The translations under genes and the position numbers were made by a program. From Bdellovibrio sp. ZAP7 (GTDB lineage: Bacteria; Bdellovibrionota; FAC87; UBA2466), in the NCBI GenBank assembly GCA_945878405.1, contig CAMCTJ010000002.1, positions 129,099-193,098 of the forward strand: a stretch of 64,000 nt of DNA, written 5' to 3'. Shown here piece after piece: positions 17,350 to 56,438 of this stretch (the stretch's first letter is position 1; each line of letters starts with the position of its first letter). The notes below the pieces were generated by a model. The model was not told the origin of the DNA, searched no databases, and saw only the letters and a program-made list of their open reading frames with translations.

Positions 17350-18249
17350 CTAATAACAGTGATTGGGTAAGAAAGCAGTATAATCTGCCCAGTCTTGATA
17401 AGGAGCAGGAGCCCGCAGAGCTTTTTGAATATCTCGAATATCTTCGCATCGCCAGCCCACAGGGGGATTCTCGGGATCTAAATCTTGAGGGGTGTAGTGA
17501 TACATGCTGGCCGTGATGACTACACAACCGCCTTCATCTTCAGTTGCTTTGTAATCGTGCAGACTTTTTAGTTTTCGGCAGGAGTTTGCTTTTGAAGCAA
17601 AGTGGAAAACCCATTTTTTAAGAGAAATCGGTAGTTTTTCATAACTTGGATCCAGAACGATTTCATATTCGCCATCAGTCCCTTTAACATTCACATAGGG
17701 GGCGACGTGATACCACCAATTGAAATTGTTTTCTTTTCGATAACCGGCAGTAAAGAGAACAAAGACTTTCATGGAGTTCACTTTGTGATCGACTTCGAAA
17801 GCTCTGGCCCAGTAGTGAGCTCGGTTGTAGCAGTCGTCACTTAAATCGGCATCAGAGTAAGAATCGACGGAATCAAAAAGGGTTTTTGTCTTGAGGTAGT
17901 TTGAAATCAGCGAAGGGCTGTAAAGGCCCGGATTCCAGCGAAGCGACCGGGGGGCTAAAATTTCCTTTTTTTCTTGGGCTAAAGTAATTTTGGAAATTTC
18001 GGCCGTTGATGAATCAACTTCTAGGGAGACCGCAGAGCCCATTTGAATAGCCAATCGAGCGGTAATGAGTGACTCAGTATTTTCTGAATCGAGATAGAGA
18101 ATTCTCGGAGAGCTGAAGGTTAAAACTTCCATCTGGGGGGAATCTTCGGAAGCTTTCTCAAGTGAAAATAAATGGGTTTCGATTGAGTCTCCCCAGGAGA
18201 GTTGAGTGAGGCAAAGAACCAGGAAAACGAAGACAGTGAAAATTTTCAT
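17350..18249 (-). CDS. Secreted protein-glutaminase-like cysteine hydrolase
   Basis: A 299-residue protein with signal peptide (cleavage near LSWG). The central domain resembles the transglutaminase-like fold of bacterial protein glutaminase. Cys140 lies in DDCYNRAHYWARAF, His181 in NWWYHVAPYV and Asp200 in YEIVLDPSY, giving an ordered Cys-His-Asp triad with the expected local sequence (C-Y-x-R-A-H; W-x-Y-H-V; V-L-D-P-S). Protein glutaminases deamidate side-chain glutamines; the target here is unknown, and a peptidase or transglutaminase activity is an alternative. A terminator hairpin lies just upstream, ending the repeat-protein transcript. Confidence 0.65.
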   Translation of the reverse strand: MKIFTVFVFLVLCLTQLSWGDSIETHLFSLEKASEDSPQMEVLTFSSPRILYLDSENTESLITARLAIQMGSAVSLEVDSSTAEISKITLAQEKKEILAPRSLRWNPGLYSPSLISNYLKTKTLFDSVDSYSDADLSDDCYNRAHYWARAFEVDHKVNSMKVFVLFTAGYRKENNFNWWYHVAPYVNVKGTDGEYEIVLDPSYEKLPISLKKWVFHFASKANSCRKLKSLHDYKATEDEGGCVVITASMYHYTPQDLDPENPPVGWRCEDIRDIQKALRAPAPYQDWADYTAFLPNHCY

Positions 18250-18300: not shown

Positions 18301-18338
18301 AAAACAAAAAGGGCCTACCCTACCGGGTAAACCCTTTT
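18301..18338 (-). terminator. Rho-independent terminator of the repeat-protein gene
   Basis: Read on the minus strand: AAAAGGG, inner stem with a short loop, CCCTTTTT, then GTTTT. The outer arms are perfectly complementary and an inner ACCC/GGGT pair extends the stem. It lies about 30 bases downstream of the stop codon of the gene at 18367-19083. Confidence 0.75.
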
Positions 18339-18366: not shown

Positions 18367-19083
18367 TTAGTAGCCGAAGCCTCCCATTCCACCCATGCCC
18401 ATTCCACCCATGCCCATTCCACCCATACCCATTCCACCCATCATGCCGGGCATACCCATACCCATGCCGCCCATCATGCCGGGCATACCCATACCCATGC
18501 CGCCCATCATGCCTGGCATACCCATACCCATGCCGCCCATCATGCCGGGCATACCCATACCCATGCCGCCCATCATGAAGGGATCCATACCCATTCCGCC
18601 CATACCCATGCCGCCCATCATGTATGGGTAGTAAGGATAATAGGGGTAGTAAGGATAATAAGGATAATAAGGATAATAGGGGTAGTAAGGATAGTAAGGG
18701 TACATTCCGGGATAGCCCATGCCGCCCATACCCATTCCGCCCATGCCGCCCATGCCGCCCATTCCACCCATACCGTAGCCGCCATACATATACGGGTCAT
18801 AAGCAGGCATGGTGTAATTTTGATTGAAGTTACTAAACCCAATATCAAAACCACCGAATGGTAATCCCATTCCTAAATTAAAACTGTTACCAGTAGAGCT
18901 TCCACCGTAAGTGGTATAAGCGTTCTGTTGCGTATCCACTACTGGACGTTTGGTAATACCGCGAGAAGAAGAGCTTTCCGCACGAAGAGAACGACCGCTA
19001 GCACTATGGTCACCGGCTGTTCTTGCATAAGACAAAGAGCCGATAATCATCAAACCTATTACGTACCACTTACTGTTTTTCAT
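18367..19083 (-). CDS. Exported Gly/Met/Tyr-rich tandem-repeat protein
   Basis: A 238-residue low-complexity protein with an N-terminal signal peptide (KWYVIGLMIIGSLSYA). After about 70 ordinary residues it is almost entirely repeats: MGGMGGMG-type tracts, a PYY tract of nine or more units, four copies of the 11-residue MGGMGMGMPGM, and a final MGGMG run ending in GGFGY. It is not related to a catalytic family that I recognise. The composition suggests a surface, adhesive or structural filament protein, or a disordered metal-binding one through its many methionines. GGAG lies eight bases before the ATG, and a hairpin sits in the 5' leader. Confidence 0.7.
   Translation of the reverse strand: MKNSKWYVIGLMIIGSLSYARTAGDHSASGRSLRAESSSSRGITKRPVVDTQQNAYTTYGGSSTGNSFNLGMGLPFGGFDIGFSNFNQNYTMPAYDPYMYGGYGMGGMGGMGGMGGMGMGGMGYPGMYPYYPYYPYYPYYPYYPYYPYYPYYPYMMGGMGMGGMGMDPFMMGGMGMGMPGMMGGMGMGMPGMMGGMGMGMPGMMGGMGMGMPGMMGGMGMGGMGMGGMGMGGMGGFGY
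18439..18570. repeat. Four tandem 33-bp repeats inside the repeat-protein gene
   Basis: Units at 18439-18471, 18472-18504, 18505-18537 and 18538-18570, identical except for one base in the third. Each encodes 11 residues in frame. A fifth, diverged copy follows. The near-identity indicates recent expansion by slippage or recombination. Confidence 0.95.
18626..18706. repeat. 9-bp repeat tract encoding poly-(Pro-Tyr-Tyr)
   Basis: Repeated ggataataa/gggtagtaa units encode consecutive PYY triplets on the minus strand. Synonymous differences between units show it is somewhat older than the 33-bp block. Confidence 0.9.
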
Positions 19084-19118
19084 TTTCCAAACTCCACAAT
19101 AAAACGCTCAACTCGTAG

Positions 19119-19140
19119 GAACCTCCACCGAGGAGGATCC
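19119..19140. promoter_or_regulatory. Inverted repeat in the 5' leader of the repeat-protein gene
   Basis: CCTCC-ACCGA-GGAGG with outer GGA/TCC pairing across one mismatch, 36-57 bases upstream of the start codon at 19083. On the transcript it would form a stable small hairpin. It could be an operator or an mRNA structure; there is no direct evidence for either. Confidence 0.35.
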
Positions 19141-19259
19141 CTGGACGCGTACACCTAGAGCATTCTCTATACCAATTGTGAAGCTAAGAGATTTCGAGGG
19201 GTTATGAAGCCCCCTCTCATTTGAAACGCAAAAAGGCTCAACGCATGTCTAAAAGCTGA

Positions 19260-20984
19260 TCACTTTTTTTCAAGCAGGAGATAGGATCGGTTTTTACCTA
19301 AGGGAACTTCTAAAGCTGTTTTGAAGTGTGATTCAAGCCAACTTCGAAAAGCTGGTACTCCAGCGAATCGTTGATATTGGTATTCTTCCTTACCTGTTGT
19401 CTTGTCCTGTTTCTTTTGGGCAGATACCAAGACGTATTTGAGGCTGGGATTGTCGATGGTCTTAATGGCCTCCTGGGCAGGGGTAATCTTTGATGTAAAT
19501 CTCATCGTATTCGTATCTGAAAAATCCTTCTCAAGACGACGATTAGAAAGAATTGCTACGATTCCGACTGTAATGGAATCGCCAAACAGGGTGTCACGTT
19601 CAGTTGAGTTCTGGGCGATAAAGTTAGACAAAGTGTTGAAGGGTTTAAAAAAATCTCCAGTTCGATAGAGAATTTCTTGAGCGTTTCCATATTCAACACC
19701 ACCTAATGCTATGGAATCCCAACAGCACCATTTAAAGAAACTGTTTGCCGTGGGAATGGGGGAGTCTCTCCATTTCATTTCCTGATCTTTCTTTCTAAAG
19801 GCTCCAGGACTGAATGCTTCATAGCTAGGACGGTACAGAGCGTAGCCCCCCAGTAAAACAGAAATAAAGAGTAAACGAAATGCCAGATTATCGTTCCACT
19901 GCACTGAAAGACGGGATCTTAAATGCCGGACCGATATCAAAACCCATTCGAACACTTGCTCGGCCAAATAACCGGAACAGAGCGCAAGACCCGGGAAAAC
20001 AAGATGGTAATAAAAACTAAATCGTTTCTTCAAAAGATGCAGAAAAACCAAATAACCCAAAGCCCAGACACCGCCAATAAATGCTACTGAAAACCGTTCA
20101 TCATCAAAGATAAAATGCTTGAGCCGTATCATGAAAAAAGGGTTTTTCTTCTTCTGTTTCCCAGCTAGTTGATTTTTTCTCTCTAGAAGAGCCAACCAAA
20201 GCCCATTTAAGCCCATCCAAAAAAGCGAGAAATTCATGAAGAAGTGCTGGATGGTATCTCTCCAAGCTGACTGCTTTGCTTCCGGCTTTCTAAAGTGAAA
20301 TAAATATACTGAGCGGAGATATTCACTTCCGCCCAAAATGATCCCAGCAATTTGAGTGATGCCCCATACTCCCAGAAAAGAACGGCCGTATTTTTTTAAA
20401 GTTTCCCGCTCTTCAATTCGAGCAAGAGCACCTACCAAGACTGCGGCTGGAAGAATATAAGTTCCAGTGCACACTCCGAGAGCGAGACAGACTCCCGCCC
20501 AAGTAGGTTTTTTTCGAAGAAAAAACCATAAACCCATTGTTGCTAAAAGAACCGATTCGTGAACACCAGTCCAAAAAGTGGTTGATCTCAAAAGTGAAAA
20601 AGCTGTTAAAAATAGAAAGGCGCTAAAGACTGCTGCAATTCTCCCGATTTTCTGTTTGCTGATAAGAAAAATAAAGACGGCTGTCAGGGAGGTGGCAACG
20701 AGGGGCAAAGCCTTGGCTGCAACCGGATTAAATCCAAAAAGGGCAAAGACGGGAATGGACCAAACGAGTTGAAAAGGAGGATGAGCAAAAAAGTAATCTT
20801 TGTAGGGGATCGCGCCATGATCGAGAGCTGCCCATGACATATAGAGATAGATTGCTTCATCTCCGGGTTCCCATTGAAAACTAAATGACTTAAGTCCCCA
20901 GAAAAAAACAAGCATTAAGCCGAGACCGACCCAGCTAACTACGTCCAGAATTAGAGAAACCTTATCTTCGGAAGATCGTTGCAT
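19260..20984 (-). CDS. Membrane glycosyltransferase, GT-C fold (PMT/ArnT-like)
   Basis: A 574-residue polytopic protein. The first extracytoplasmic loop has the GT-C signature: EPGDEAIYLYMSWAALDHG with an acidic pair, followed by YKDYFFAHPPF, as in family GT39/GT83 dolichyl- or polyprenyl-phosphate-sugar transferases. About ten hydrophobic segments follow, then a soluble C-terminal domain of about 170 residues. It probably transfers a sugar from a polyprenyl carrier to a protein, lipid or glycan on the periplasmic side. It is the last of three closely spaced minus-strand genes after the DUF255 and Rieske genes (gap nine bases). Confidence 0.78.
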   Translation of the reverse strand: MQRSSEDKVSLILDVVSWVGLGLMLVFFWGLKSFSFQWEPGDEAIYLYMSWAALDHGAIPYKDYFFAHPPFQLVWSIPVFALFGFNPVAAKALPLVATSLTAVFIFLISKQKIGRIAAVFSAFLFLTAFSLLRSTTFWTGVHESVLLATMGLWFFLRKKPTWAGVCLALGVCTGTYILPAAVLVGALARIEERETLKKYGRSFLGVWGITQIAGIILGGSEYLRSVYLFHFRKPEAKQSAWRDTIQHFFMNFSLFWMGLNGLWLALLERKNQLAGKQKKKNPFFMIRLKHFIFDDERFSVAFIGGVWALGYLVFLHLLKKRFSFYYHLVFPGLALCSGYLAEQVFEWVLISVRHLRSRLSVQWNDNLAFRLLFISVLLGGYALYRPSYEAFSPGAFRKKDQEMKWRDSPIPTANSFFKWCCWDSIALGGVEYGNAQEILYRTGDFFKPFNTLSNFIAQNSTERDTLFGDSITVGIVAILSNRRLEKDFSDTNTMRFTSKITPAQEAIKTIDNPSLKYVLVSAQKKQDKTTGKEEYQYQRFAGVPAFRSWLESHFKTALEVPLGKNRSYLLLEKK

Positions 20985-20993
20985 TGTTTTATT

Positions 20994-21302
20994 CTACCAT
21001 CGGATTTGAACGTTTTTCCCACTCAGAATGACCTGATAAGTCTTAAGAGCGCCAAGTTTCGAATTCGACAAGCAATGTCCTGAATTTAAATCAAACTGAG
21101 CGTGATGCCAGGGGCAGGTCACGCATCCGTTTTCTAGTTTCCCTTCGCTTAGTGGGCCGCCTCGATGGCTGCACCTATCATCGATTGCAAACCAGCCCTC
21201 AGCGGTATGAAAAAGTGCAATCATTCTTCCAGAAACTTCCACTAGCTTTGAATTGCCTAAGGGAATTTCTTCCACCGATGCCACAGTAAGAGCACTATCC
21301 AT
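20994..21302 (-). CDS. Rieske [2Fe-2S] ferredoxin-like protein
   Basis: A 102-residue soluble Rieske protein. The cluster ligands are Cys44 and His46 (CSHRGGPL) and Cys63 and His66 (CPWHHAQF), the CxH...CxxH pattern of ferredoxin-type Rieske proteins and NirD-like subunits. It has no transmembrane anchor. It may pass electrons to an oxygenase or reductase not encoded here. The start overlaps the end of the DUF255 gene by eight bases, so translation is likely coupled. Confidence 0.88.
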
Positions 21303-23373
21303 CTAAAGCTTCCTTTAGTTTAGACAGATCTGTAAAAGGTGCGAGACAGGTTCGATTTTCACACAGATAAGCGGTTGCGAGTCCCTTCACAGATTTTCGT
21401 TCCTGCAGCATTTGAAGATTTGAGTTTTTTTCGGTTTTTAGAAGCGTAACAAGATTGGGATAGAAATGTCCTCTAATAAAATCCAGAAAATCTTTTTCGC
21501 TTTCCTCTTCAGTTCCTGGGACTAAAACAAGTTCTTTGGATTTGTTATTCAGTAGCTCAAGAGCCAAAAGAAATTGTCCCGAAGCTAACGGCGCTCGAGT
21601 GATAAAAGAAGAGTAACTAGTTAAGACTTTTTCCGCTTTCTCTAAATAAAGGGCATTCCCGTTGAGTTTTCCCAATCGAACCAATCCACTAACCATCATA
21701 CCTGTGGCACTGGGAAGGGCTCCATCCTGATATTCTTTAGGTCTAAAAATTAATGATTCGTAGGTTTTTCCAGTGAAAAAAAAGTCATTATTTTTAGAGT
21801 CCCAAAATTCGGAGAGTACGGTATCTGCCAACTTTTCTGCCCACTTGATCCAACGAGGATCAAAATCTGATTCAAAGAGAGCCAGAAGGCCATTGATGAA
21901 ATAGGCATAGTCATCCAAATAGGCATTGAAATAGGGCTTTCCATCTTGAAAGCAGTGATAAAGCTCACCCGATTCGGGCCTTTTTAAAAACCGCTCCACA
22001 AACAAGGCGCAGTTTCTTGCTGAGTCAAGGTAGCTTGGCTCGTCGAGAACTTGATAGGCTCGAGCCATTGATTCGATCATGAGACCGTTCCATGCAAGAA
22101 TCACTTTTTCATCTCGATGAGGAGAAACCCGCTCGCTTCTGAGAGCCAAAAGAATTCGCTGTGATTTCGACAGGGAATTCTCAAGCCAGATAGGATCAAC
22201 TTGTTTTTCCGAAGCATAAACTTCTAGGGATCGAGACAAGTGTAGGATGTTTACCCCCTCCCAATTTCCCCGTTCGGTAACTCCGTATACATCGCAAAAA
22301 AGAGAAGCATCCTCGGCGCTCAAAGCTGCTTCAATCTCTTTTTTGCTCCAAACATAGAATTTACCTTCTACTCCCTCACTATCCGCATCTTCAGTACTAA
22401 AATAACCACCGAGTGGGCTTGTCATTTTCTGACATACATAATCTAGCGTTTCTCGTACAACTCTTGCGTAGTTAACTCTGTGAGTAGCTTGAAAAGCCTC
22501 CAGATAAACTTGGACTACCAAGGCATTGTCATAAAGCATCTTCTCAAAGTGGGGTACTAACCATTCTCTATCAGTCGAATAGCGATGAAAACCTCCTCCG
22601 AGATGGTCGTAGATCCCTCCTCGAGACCACTGATCTAAAGTGTTTTCTAGTGCAGAAAGACCCTCTGGGTTTCTTGAGTTTTTCCAGTGGCGTAAAACCA
22701 CTCTCCAGTCTGTCGTGTGAAAAAACTTTGGAGCAGAACCAACACCACCCCACTCGTGATCCGTTTTTTCGTAGATAGCCTGATAGGCTTGGGCTGTGGT
22801 TTTTATACTTTCAGAGAGATTGGTTTCTCCCGTGGTTTCGCCACCCTGAGTTCCCAGTTCGGTCATTTGAGATAAGGCTTGGGTAAGTTCTTGGGCAGTT
22901 TGAAGTATTTCTTCCGGACGGTTTTTCCAAGCCTGAGCAATTCCCAGTAGTACTTTTTTGAAACTGGGCATTCCCATTCTGTCCTGAGGAGGAAAGTAGG
23001 TGCCTCCGTAAAAGGGTTGAAGACTCGGAGTTAAAAAAACGTTGAGTGGCCATCCCCCTCGATGAGTAAGAGTTTGAACGGCAGCCATGTAAACATGATC
23101 CAGGTCGGGCCGTTCCTCCCGATCGACTTTAATACTTACAAAATGTTTTTTGAGAATTTCTGTAGTCTCTGGGTCTTCAAAGCTTTCTCGTTCCATAACG
23201 TGGCACCAATGGCAGGCCGAATAGCCAATGGACAAGAAAATAGGCTTGTTTTCTTTCTTTGATTTTTGGAGGGCCTCGGAACCCCAAGGATACCAATCTA
23301 CCGGGTTCGTACCATGTTGTTGCAAATAGGCGCTGGACTCATAGGCTAAGCGGTTTTTTGGGGGGGACTTCAT
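21295..23373 (-). CDS. DUF255 thioredoxin-domain protein (YyaL/SSP411 family)
   Basis: A 692-residue protein of the YyaL/spermatogenesis-associated protein 20 family. The N-terminal thioredoxin-like domain opens with [23 protein letters not shown] and the CxxC motif CHWCH at 54-58, followed by MERESFED. The remainder is an (alpha/alpha)6 barrel related to N-acylglucosamine epimerases and glycosidases, with [17 protein letters not shown] and [11 protein letters not shown] blocks. Length and motifs are typical of the full family. Function unresolved; a redox-linked sugar-modifying activity is often suggested. First gene of the three-gene minus-strand unit. Confidence 0.9.
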
Positions 23374-56033: not shown

Positions 56034-56438
56034 GTGGAAGATTGGAAAAACAAACCAGATTCTTTTTGGCGTGAACAACTGAGTAACGACCAATATGCCG
56101 TTTGTCGAAAAGGGGCTACGGAAAAGCCTTTTACTGGCAAGTATTACCATCACCATGAAGCGGGTATCTACCACTGTGCTGGCTGCAACTTGCCTTTGTT
56201 TCGTTCAGAGGAAAAATACGAATCTGGGAGTGGCTGGCCGAGCTATTGGGCACCCGTAGATCCCAAAAATATTGAGACCGTTTCGGATACTTCTCACGGC
56301 ATGGTTCGTACAGAAATTCGATGCGCTCGTTGCCAAGCCCATTTGGGCCATGTTTTTGAAGATGGTCCAGCTCCGACCTATCAGCGCTTCTGTGTGAATT
56401 CGTTATCGCTTAACTTTAGTAGTAGTTCCCGTAAATAG
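56034..56438 (+). CDS. msrB: Peptide methionine-R-sulfoxide reductase
   Basis: Repairs methionine-R-sulfoxide in proteins. The 134 residues have two zinc-binding CxxC pairs (YHCAGCNLP and EIRCARCQAH), the substrate pocket SGSGWPSYW, HLGHVFEDGP and the catalytic Cys in RFCVNSLSL. The start is GTG 56034, with GAGGA upstream at normal spacing. Its last 23 bases overlap the convergent Ig-like lipoprotein gene. It may receive electrons from the thioredoxin-fold protein encoded just upstream. Confidence 0.92.
   Translation: MEDWKNKPDSFWREQLSNDQYAVCRKGATEKPFTGKYYHHHEAGIYHCAGCNLPLFRSEEKYESGSGWPSYWAPVDPKNIETVSDTSHGMVRTEIRCARCQAHLGHVFEDGPAPTYQRFCVNSLSLNFSSSSRK

What the first reader, a model, noticed from the sequence alone, without database searches (positions are those of the whole stretch)
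18367..19083. Recently expanded Gly/Met/Tyr repeat protein, exported
Seen: four 33-bp units differing by a single base, plus a 9-bp PYY tract and MGGMG runs, after a signal peptide, with its own terminator. All unit lengths are multiples of three, so slippage changes length without frameshift. Inference: a surface fibre, glue or methionine-rich metal/oxidant sink whose length varies between strains; msrB elsewhere in the window could act on such methionines.
Basis: partly seen in the sequence, partly recalled or inferred. Interest (0 to 1): 0.55.

Follow-up and report, generated by a model that had tools for sequence, protein, structure and literature searches.

The report
Exported glycine-methionine-tyrosine repeat protein
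A freshwater bacterium and its close relatives carry an exported protein made almost entirely of sticky glycine, methionine and tyrosine repeats that each species has rebuilt in its own way, most likely a self-assembling structural material of the cell envelope.

Summary
The gene at 18367-19083(-) encodes 238 aa: a signal peptide, a 37-aa linker, a conserved block and a 135-aa tail of 40% Gly, 32% Met, 15% Tyr and 11% Pro. The tail has four 33-bp units differing by one synonymous base, eight PYY units, and a terminator. Orthologues occur in both other genomes of the genus. The block is nearly invariant (pN 0.03-0.05, pS 0.81-0.98), while the repeat units are lineage-specific. Six of nine copies found in the family are cut by a contig end inside the repeats (0.4 expected by a rough calculation). 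So the array is real, in frame and re-expanded per lineage, but strain-level length variation could not be tested. Met varies from 4% to 32% between copies, whereas Met plus aromatics stays at 34-48%. That argues for interchangeable 'stickers' in a self-associating material rather than a dedicated methionine sink. The window's MsrB has no signal peptide and lies 37 kb away. New: a sigma54-like promoter element and a leader hairpin with paired changes, both conserved in the genus; similar promoter elements occur in two other genera. Best reading: an abundant, exported, disordered structural protein (about 0.5). Function is untested.

The parts
18367..19083 (-). CDS, 238-aa exported Gly/Met/Tyr/Pro repeat protein
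   Evidence: no Pfam or NCBIfam family
19024..19083 (-). predicted Sec signal peptide, residues 1-20 (no lipobox Cys)
   Evidence: sequence; same pattern in both orthologues; no signal-peptide program was available
18913..19023 (-). Ser/Arg-rich linker, residues 21-57, fast evolving
   Evidence: signal+linker pN 0.29-0.43 between species
18784..18912 (-). conserved block, residues 58-100 (NSFNLGMGLPFGGFDIGFSNFNQNYTMPAYDPY), near-invariant in three species; similar motif at the C-terminus of genus g6 proteins
18715..18774 (-). first GGM-type tract, residues 104-123
18628..18699 (-). eight PYY units, older, synonymous differences only
   Evidence: also in G002 and, in another genus, G012
18445..18576 (-). 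four 33-bp units (MMGGMGMGMPG), one base different among them
18307..18338 (-). intrinsic terminator
19159..19174 (-). sigma54-like -24/-12 element TGGTATAGAGAATGCT, 91 nt upstream of the ATG, conserved in genus
   Evidence: RpoN gene present in genome
19117..19141 (-). mRNA leader hairpin, 4 of 9 pairs with changes on both sides among three species
17350..18249 (-). neighbouring gene downstream, exported-looking protein-glutaminase-like protein (PF18626); synteny marker
20994..21302 (-). Rieske ferredoxin-like gene upstream; synteny marker, directly adjacent to the orthologue in G001 and G002

Best explanation
The gene makes an abundant, Sec-exported, mostly disordered structural protein that self-associates outside the cytoplasm into a coat, matrix or fibre-like layer. 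Its tail works as 'stickers and spacers': Met, Tyr, Phe and Trp side chains are the stickers; Gly and Pro are the flexible spacers. The conserved block (residues 58-100) is the fixed, selected part, perhaps an anchor or assembly nucleus. The repeat array changes length in frame by slippage or recombination and is re-homogenised in each lineage, so composition is kept while sequence is not. Transcription probably starts at a sigma54-dependent promoter, and a leader hairpin may stabilise the mRNA. Shown: gene, repeats, orthology, synteny, selection on the block, conserved leader. Inferred: export, self-assembly, location, abundance, sigma54 control, length variation within a species.
For: Signal peptide pattern in all three genus members. 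Conserved block under strong purifying selection (42 codons; pN 0.03-0.05, pS 0.81-0.98), linker not. Repeat region is 85-99% Gly+Met+aromatic+Pro in 8 copies, but about 75% in G006, where S/T/N/Q make up 21%. Met is 4-32% while Met+aromatics stay at 34-48% across 9 copies. AlphaFold finds only the signal helix (mean pLDDT 42, pTM 0.14), compatible with disorder, though three sequences are too few to say more. Different units per lineage: 11-aa MMGGMGMGMPG (window), 12-aa GGFGMGPMMGGM and 6-aa GGGYGM (G001), GYGMG (G010), GYGYGYPGFGM (G011). Contig ends inside the gene in 6 of 9 copies against 0.42 expected, P about 3e-7 (rough, post hoc); the longer CstA gene is cut in 1 of 9 g1/g6 genomes. 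Leader conserved in all three, found once in each g1 genome and in none of the other 11 family genomes.
Against: No experiment, no homologue of known function, no solved relative of the head. Export rests on sequence pattern only. Nothing shows assembly, surface location or abundance. The structure prediction is uninformative rather than positive evidence for disorder. Contig breaks can come from repeats longer than the k-mer without any strain variation. The window's sigma54 site scores only 8 of 12 against the recalled consensus (407 of 1000 shuffles as good), and the genome-wide pattern is barely above its reversed control (6 against 4). Clear orthologues by sequence occur only in one genus (3 of 368 phylum genomes at E below 1e-3).
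Confidence: 0.5

Rival explanations
1. A methionine-rich oxidant or metal sink: exported Met residues are oxidised sacrificially (recycled by a methionine sulfoxide reductase) or bind Cu(I).
For: 32% Met in the tail, 43 Met of 135 residues; the precedent of a periplasmic Met-rich peptide with a periplasmic Msr (Melnyk et al. 2015, cited in PMC7464077, reference line seen; the paper itself is not held).
Against: Met drops to 4% (G006), 7% (G007) and 10% (G011) in the counterparts of other genera while Tyr/Phe rise. No His or Cys in the window's tail. The MsrB in the window lacks a signal peptide and is 37 kb away. No msr or copper gene among the immediate neighbours examined.
Confidence: 0.15
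2. An adhesin or glue for prey, particles or biofilm, or an accessory layer of the flagellum or pilus, switched on with sigma54.
For: Tyr/Gly-rich tail; sigma54-like site. One other genomic match of the same pattern lies 29 nt before a flagellar rod gene (PF00460/PF06429), one before a PF10116 'Host_attach' protein.
Against: No Pfam domain of any kind, adhesion domains included. Sigma54 control is unproven. None of the neighbours examined is a flagellar or pilus gene.
Confidence: 0.15
3. Only the head matters; the tail is a tolerated slippage product with no material role.
For: Repeat units diverge between species while the head block is fixed.
Against: Composition is conserved although sequence is not; PYY units differ only at third positions and recur in another genus; the anchor G-M-D-P-F is kept in all three species.
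Confidence: 0.1
4. A substrate or partner of the neighbouring secreted protein-glutaminase-like enzyme.
For: Conserved adjacency: both genes together in the window and G001; in G002 the two contigs end on either side of the gap.
Against: The tail has no Gln, the whole protein only three. In genus g6 the counterpart gene lies next to CstA/RecN, not next to a glutaminase.
Confidence: 0.03

Closest known systems
Gly/aromatic low-complexity 'sticker-spacer' proteins; yeast ataxin-2 (Pbp1) Met-rich low-complexity domain (PMC8394241, passages read)
   Same: Low-complexity tail rich in Met as sticker; in Pbp1, changing Met to Tyr kept droplets but made them oxidant-resistant, which parallels the natural Met/Tyr exchange between species here.
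   Different: Pbp1 is an intracellular yeast protein and poor in aromatics in that region; this one is bacterial, probably exported, in-frame repetitive and Gly-rich. No homology claimed.
MrpX-type periplasmic Met-rich peptide with a periplasmic Msr (Melnyk et al. 2015; name recalled, reference line seen)
   Same: Exported and very rich in Met.
   Different: No Msr partner in the neighbourhood; Met not conserved across counterparts; Tyr/Pro/Gly architecture.
Intragenic tandem-repeat surface proteins (e.g. SasG, Yersinia Ilm; PMC6868369, passages read)
   Same: In-frame repeats that break or collapse in assemblies and can vary in number.
   Different: Those repeats are folded domains of about 100 aa; here they are 3-12 aa units without predicted fold.
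GroEL C-terminal GGM tail (recalled)
   Same: GGM repeats.
   Different: Cytoplasmic chaperone; no other similarity.

Membership tests
Met-rich oxidant scavenger (MrpX-like; features recalled) | exported | tested here: inconclusive
   signal peptide pattern only
Met-rich oxidant scavenger (MrpX-like; features recalled) | very high Met conserved across relatives | tested here: not met
   4-32% across 9 copies
Met-rich oxidant scavenger (MrpX-like; features recalled) | linked exported methionine sulfoxide reductase | tested here: not met
   neighbours are glutaminase-like, glycosyltransferase-like, Rieske, DUF255; the only MsrB found in the window is unlinked and lacks a signal peptide. The rest of the genome was not searched for MsrP.
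Sticker-spacer self-assembling low-complexity protein | low-complexity tail of spacer plus aromatic/Met stickers, composition conserved over sequence | tested here: met
Sticker-spacer self-assembling low-complexity protein | phase separation, gel or fibre formation | not testable with these tools
   needs purified protein
Hypervariable intragenic repeat surface protein | in-frame near-identical units | tested here: met
Hypervariable intragenic repeat surface protein | repeat number differs between strains | not testable with these tools
   one genome per species; between species the units differ
Hypervariable intragenic repeat surface protein | surface exposure | not testable with these tools
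   no localisation data
Sigma54 regulon (consensus recalled) | -24/-12 element with GG and GC 12 nt apart upstream, RpoN present | tested here: met
   activator and transcription start not shown; the window's own site is weak

The most novel reading that the evidence does not exclude
A redox-tunable extracytoplasmic condensate or gel: an exported bacterial protein whose Met stickers loosen on oxidation and whose Met:Tyr ratio has been tuned between species (32% Met in the window, 4-10% in some other genera), giving a natural series of oxidant-sensitive and oxidant-proof materials from one protein plan under sigma54 control.
Probability: 0.12. Interest if true: 0.75.

Novelty: new member of a known kind. 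Interest (0 to 1): 0.4.

Why it matters
It is an uncharacterised exported protein family (no Pfam or NCBIfam match) with unusual Met use. Related species supply a natural series of tails in which Met is swapped for Tyr/Phe, so whether Met acts as a redox-sensitive sticker outside the cytoplasm becomes directly testable. It also warns that such genes tend to be cut in short-read metagenome genomes: 6 of 9 family copies lie at contig ends.

Tried and rejected
Rfam on the gene and leader: nothing above gathering except a tRNA elsewhere. Viral contigs: no relative. PDB by sequence with the head: none. AlphaFold on three sequences: pLDDT 42, so no fold search was run. First covariance model R1 covered too much sequence and was not used; R2 found the leader only in the three genus genomes. 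Window and G001 leaders fold no better than shuffles (z -1.2 and -1.6; 0.05 and -0.8); G002 does (z -3.7 and -2.5), G011 moderately (z -2.1). So the hairpin rests on paired changes in three sequences only. The genome-wide sigma54 pattern is not clearly enriched (6 against 4 controls). Weak phylum hits of the head profile (E 0.017-0.09, 5 genomes) were treated as noise. Of 37 genomes with the GYGMGG pattern, 8 failed the test of at least 30% Gly around the hit in a frame of at least 30 aa, among them G002, a true orthologue; unrelated membrane proteins or very short frames explain several others. The antisense ORFs inside the repeats (e.g. 18395-18631 +) are taken as by-products of the repeats. 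The literature searches 'glycine-rich/tyrosine-rich/methionine-rich...' and 'Bdellovibrio/glycine-rich...' showed no description in their listings. The phylum was not identified by name; my thought of Bdellovibrionota is a guess and is not used in the argument.

Full report
**What is there.** Residues 1-20 look like a Sec signal peptide. Residues 21-57 are a Ser/Arg-rich linker, and residues 58-100 form a block of mixed composition. Residues 104-238 hold 54 Gly, 43 Met, 20 Tyr, 15 Pro, 2 Phe and 1 Asp. A terminator with a 14-pair stem follows. Four 33-bp units encode MMGGMGMGMPG; three are identical and one carries a synonymous change. A 63-nt exact repeat exceeds every one of 2000 synonymous-codon shuffles (maximum 57), so the array is a real, recent duplication. 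The eight PYY units vary only at third positions, so that tract is older and kept at the protein level.

**Relatives in the genus.** A protein search of the relatives sample finds it only in the other two genomes of the genus: 3 of 39 including the window's own and 3 of 14 in the family. With the head profile, 3 of 368 phylum genomes match below E 1e-3; five more at 0.017-0.09 were treated as noise. The same contigs are named as Lake Lanier metagenome-assembled genomes ('bacterium isolate LLD_281', 'Proteobacteria bacterium isolate LLD_190'). In both, one contig ends inside the repeats. The other side of the locus sits at the end of a different contig: the protein-glutaminase-like gene with, in G001, 65 residues of the same protein's C-terminus, and in G002 only the last bases before the stop. 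G001's C-terminal half keeps the GMDPF anchor and the GGFGY end but has other repeat units (12-aa GGFGMGPMMGGM, 6-aa GGGYGM). Residues 71-90 are identical in all three species. The block has pN 0.03-0.05 against pS 0.81-0.98 over 42 codons; the signal peptide and linker have pN 0.29-0.43.

**Relatives in the family.** A codon pattern for GYGMGG hits 7 of 14 family genomes. In genus g6 a counterpart lies convergent to CstA, next to RecN: G010, G012 and G013, then G007 and G011 through a CstA search. G011 has an intact 239-aa gene: signal-like N-terminus, linker, GYM repeats and a C-terminal motif SSWGFGLGIGGLGLNFGGSSGGFTY. The C-terminal motifs of G010, G012 and G013 resemble the window's head block. 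With one partner shuffled, 0-13 of 5000 shuffles reached the observed scores in six tests; the comparison was chosen after seeing the sequences. G006 (genus g5) has an intact Gly/Tyr-rich relative. Homology between genera is therefore plausible but not proven. No copy was identified in the other five family genomes (G003, G004, G005, G008, G009).

**Contig ends.** Six of the nine family copies (G001, G002, G007, G010, G012, G013) are cut by a contig end inside the gene. The intact ones are G000, G006 and G011. Uniformly placed breaks would give 0.42, P about 3e-7 (using rounded contig numbers and about 700 bp per gene). As a control, the longer CstA gene is cut in 1 of 9 g1/g6 genomes (G009). 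Long identical repeats explain this. Strain-level length mixtures would too, and the two cannot be separated here. The window's copy number could itself be underestimated, a known effect (PMC6868369, passages read).

**Composition argues for stickers.** Across nine copies the repeat region has 4-32% Met, but Met+Tyr+Phe+Trp stays at 34-48% and Gly at 33-53% (short contig-limited fragments included). Met and aromatics replace each other, which fits a self-associating material. A review of Met in phase separation reports that the Met-rich domain of yeast Pbp1 forms droplets that melt on oxidation and recover with Msr, and that Met-to-Tyr variants resist melting (PMC8394241, passages read). The analogy is mechanistic only.

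**Regulation.** The upstream 100 nt are conserved in the three genus members. They contain TTGGTAY-N6-TGCT with GG and GC 12 nt apart, 90-91 nt before the ATG, as in sigma54 promoters (consensus recalled). RpoN is encoded in the genome. G011 has TGGTACGACACGTGCT at -123, and G006 has the 10-of-12 match TGGCCCGAATCCTGCT at -90. Shuffles as good: G002 4, G011 15, G006 15, G001 53 and window 407 of 1000. The window's own site is thus weak on its own and gains credit only from conservation. Genome-wide the pattern gives 6 hits against 4 for its reversed control. Besides this gene, one hit lies 29 nt before a flagellar rod gene and one before a PF10116 protein. A leader hairpin (19117-19141) has changes on both sides in 4 of 9 pairs among three sequences (22 of 500 shuffles as good). 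The leader model finds no other copy in 14 family genomes.

**Wider picture.** The GYGMGG pattern hits 37 of 368 phylum genomes. In 29 of these 37 at least one hit lies in a frame of 30 aa or more with at least 30% Gly around it. Several are long exported-looking proteins with other heads and a Gly/Met-rich tail. PYYPYYPYY occurs in 6 of 368.

Observation confirmed. 'Exported' and 'recently expanded' are well supported by sequence. 'Fibre or glue' is the better half of the guess; 'methionine sink with msrB' is the weaker half, because MsrB (56034-56438) starts without a signal peptide and Met is not the conserved feature. Length variation between strains remains the key untested prediction.

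Noticed in passing
17350-18249 (-): Exported-looking protein with a Gln_deamidase_2 domain (PF18626, E 8e-17), a secreted protein-glutaminase-like enzyme, beside the repeat gene's locus in the three genus members; g6 genomes carry more distant ones, two in G010.
   Followed up: partly
19260-20984 (-): A 574-aa PMT_2/STT3-like membrane glycosyltransferase (weak family matches) sits between the repeat gene and the Rieske gene in the window but is absent at that place in G001 and G002, so it was inserted or lost.
   Followed up: no
21295-23373 (-): DUF255 (Thioredox_DsbH) protein overlapping a Rieske ferredoxin gene, a conserved pair in the genus.
   Followed up: no
L088, L084, L087, L058, L080 and others: In families f9 and f8 of the phylum, exported-looking proteins with a globular or coiled-coil-like head carry long Gly/Met-rich tails; several f8 copies also end at contig ends (L077-L079, L082).
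   Followed up: partly
L118 903-1487 (-): A PF10116 'Host_attach' protein gene starts 30 nt after a sigma54-like site in the same genome.
   Followed up: no
56034-56438 (+): MsrB (SelR, E 1e-50) with a GTG start and no signal peptide, right after a gene that by eye looks like a peroxiredoxin/thioredoxin-like protein.
   Followed up: partly
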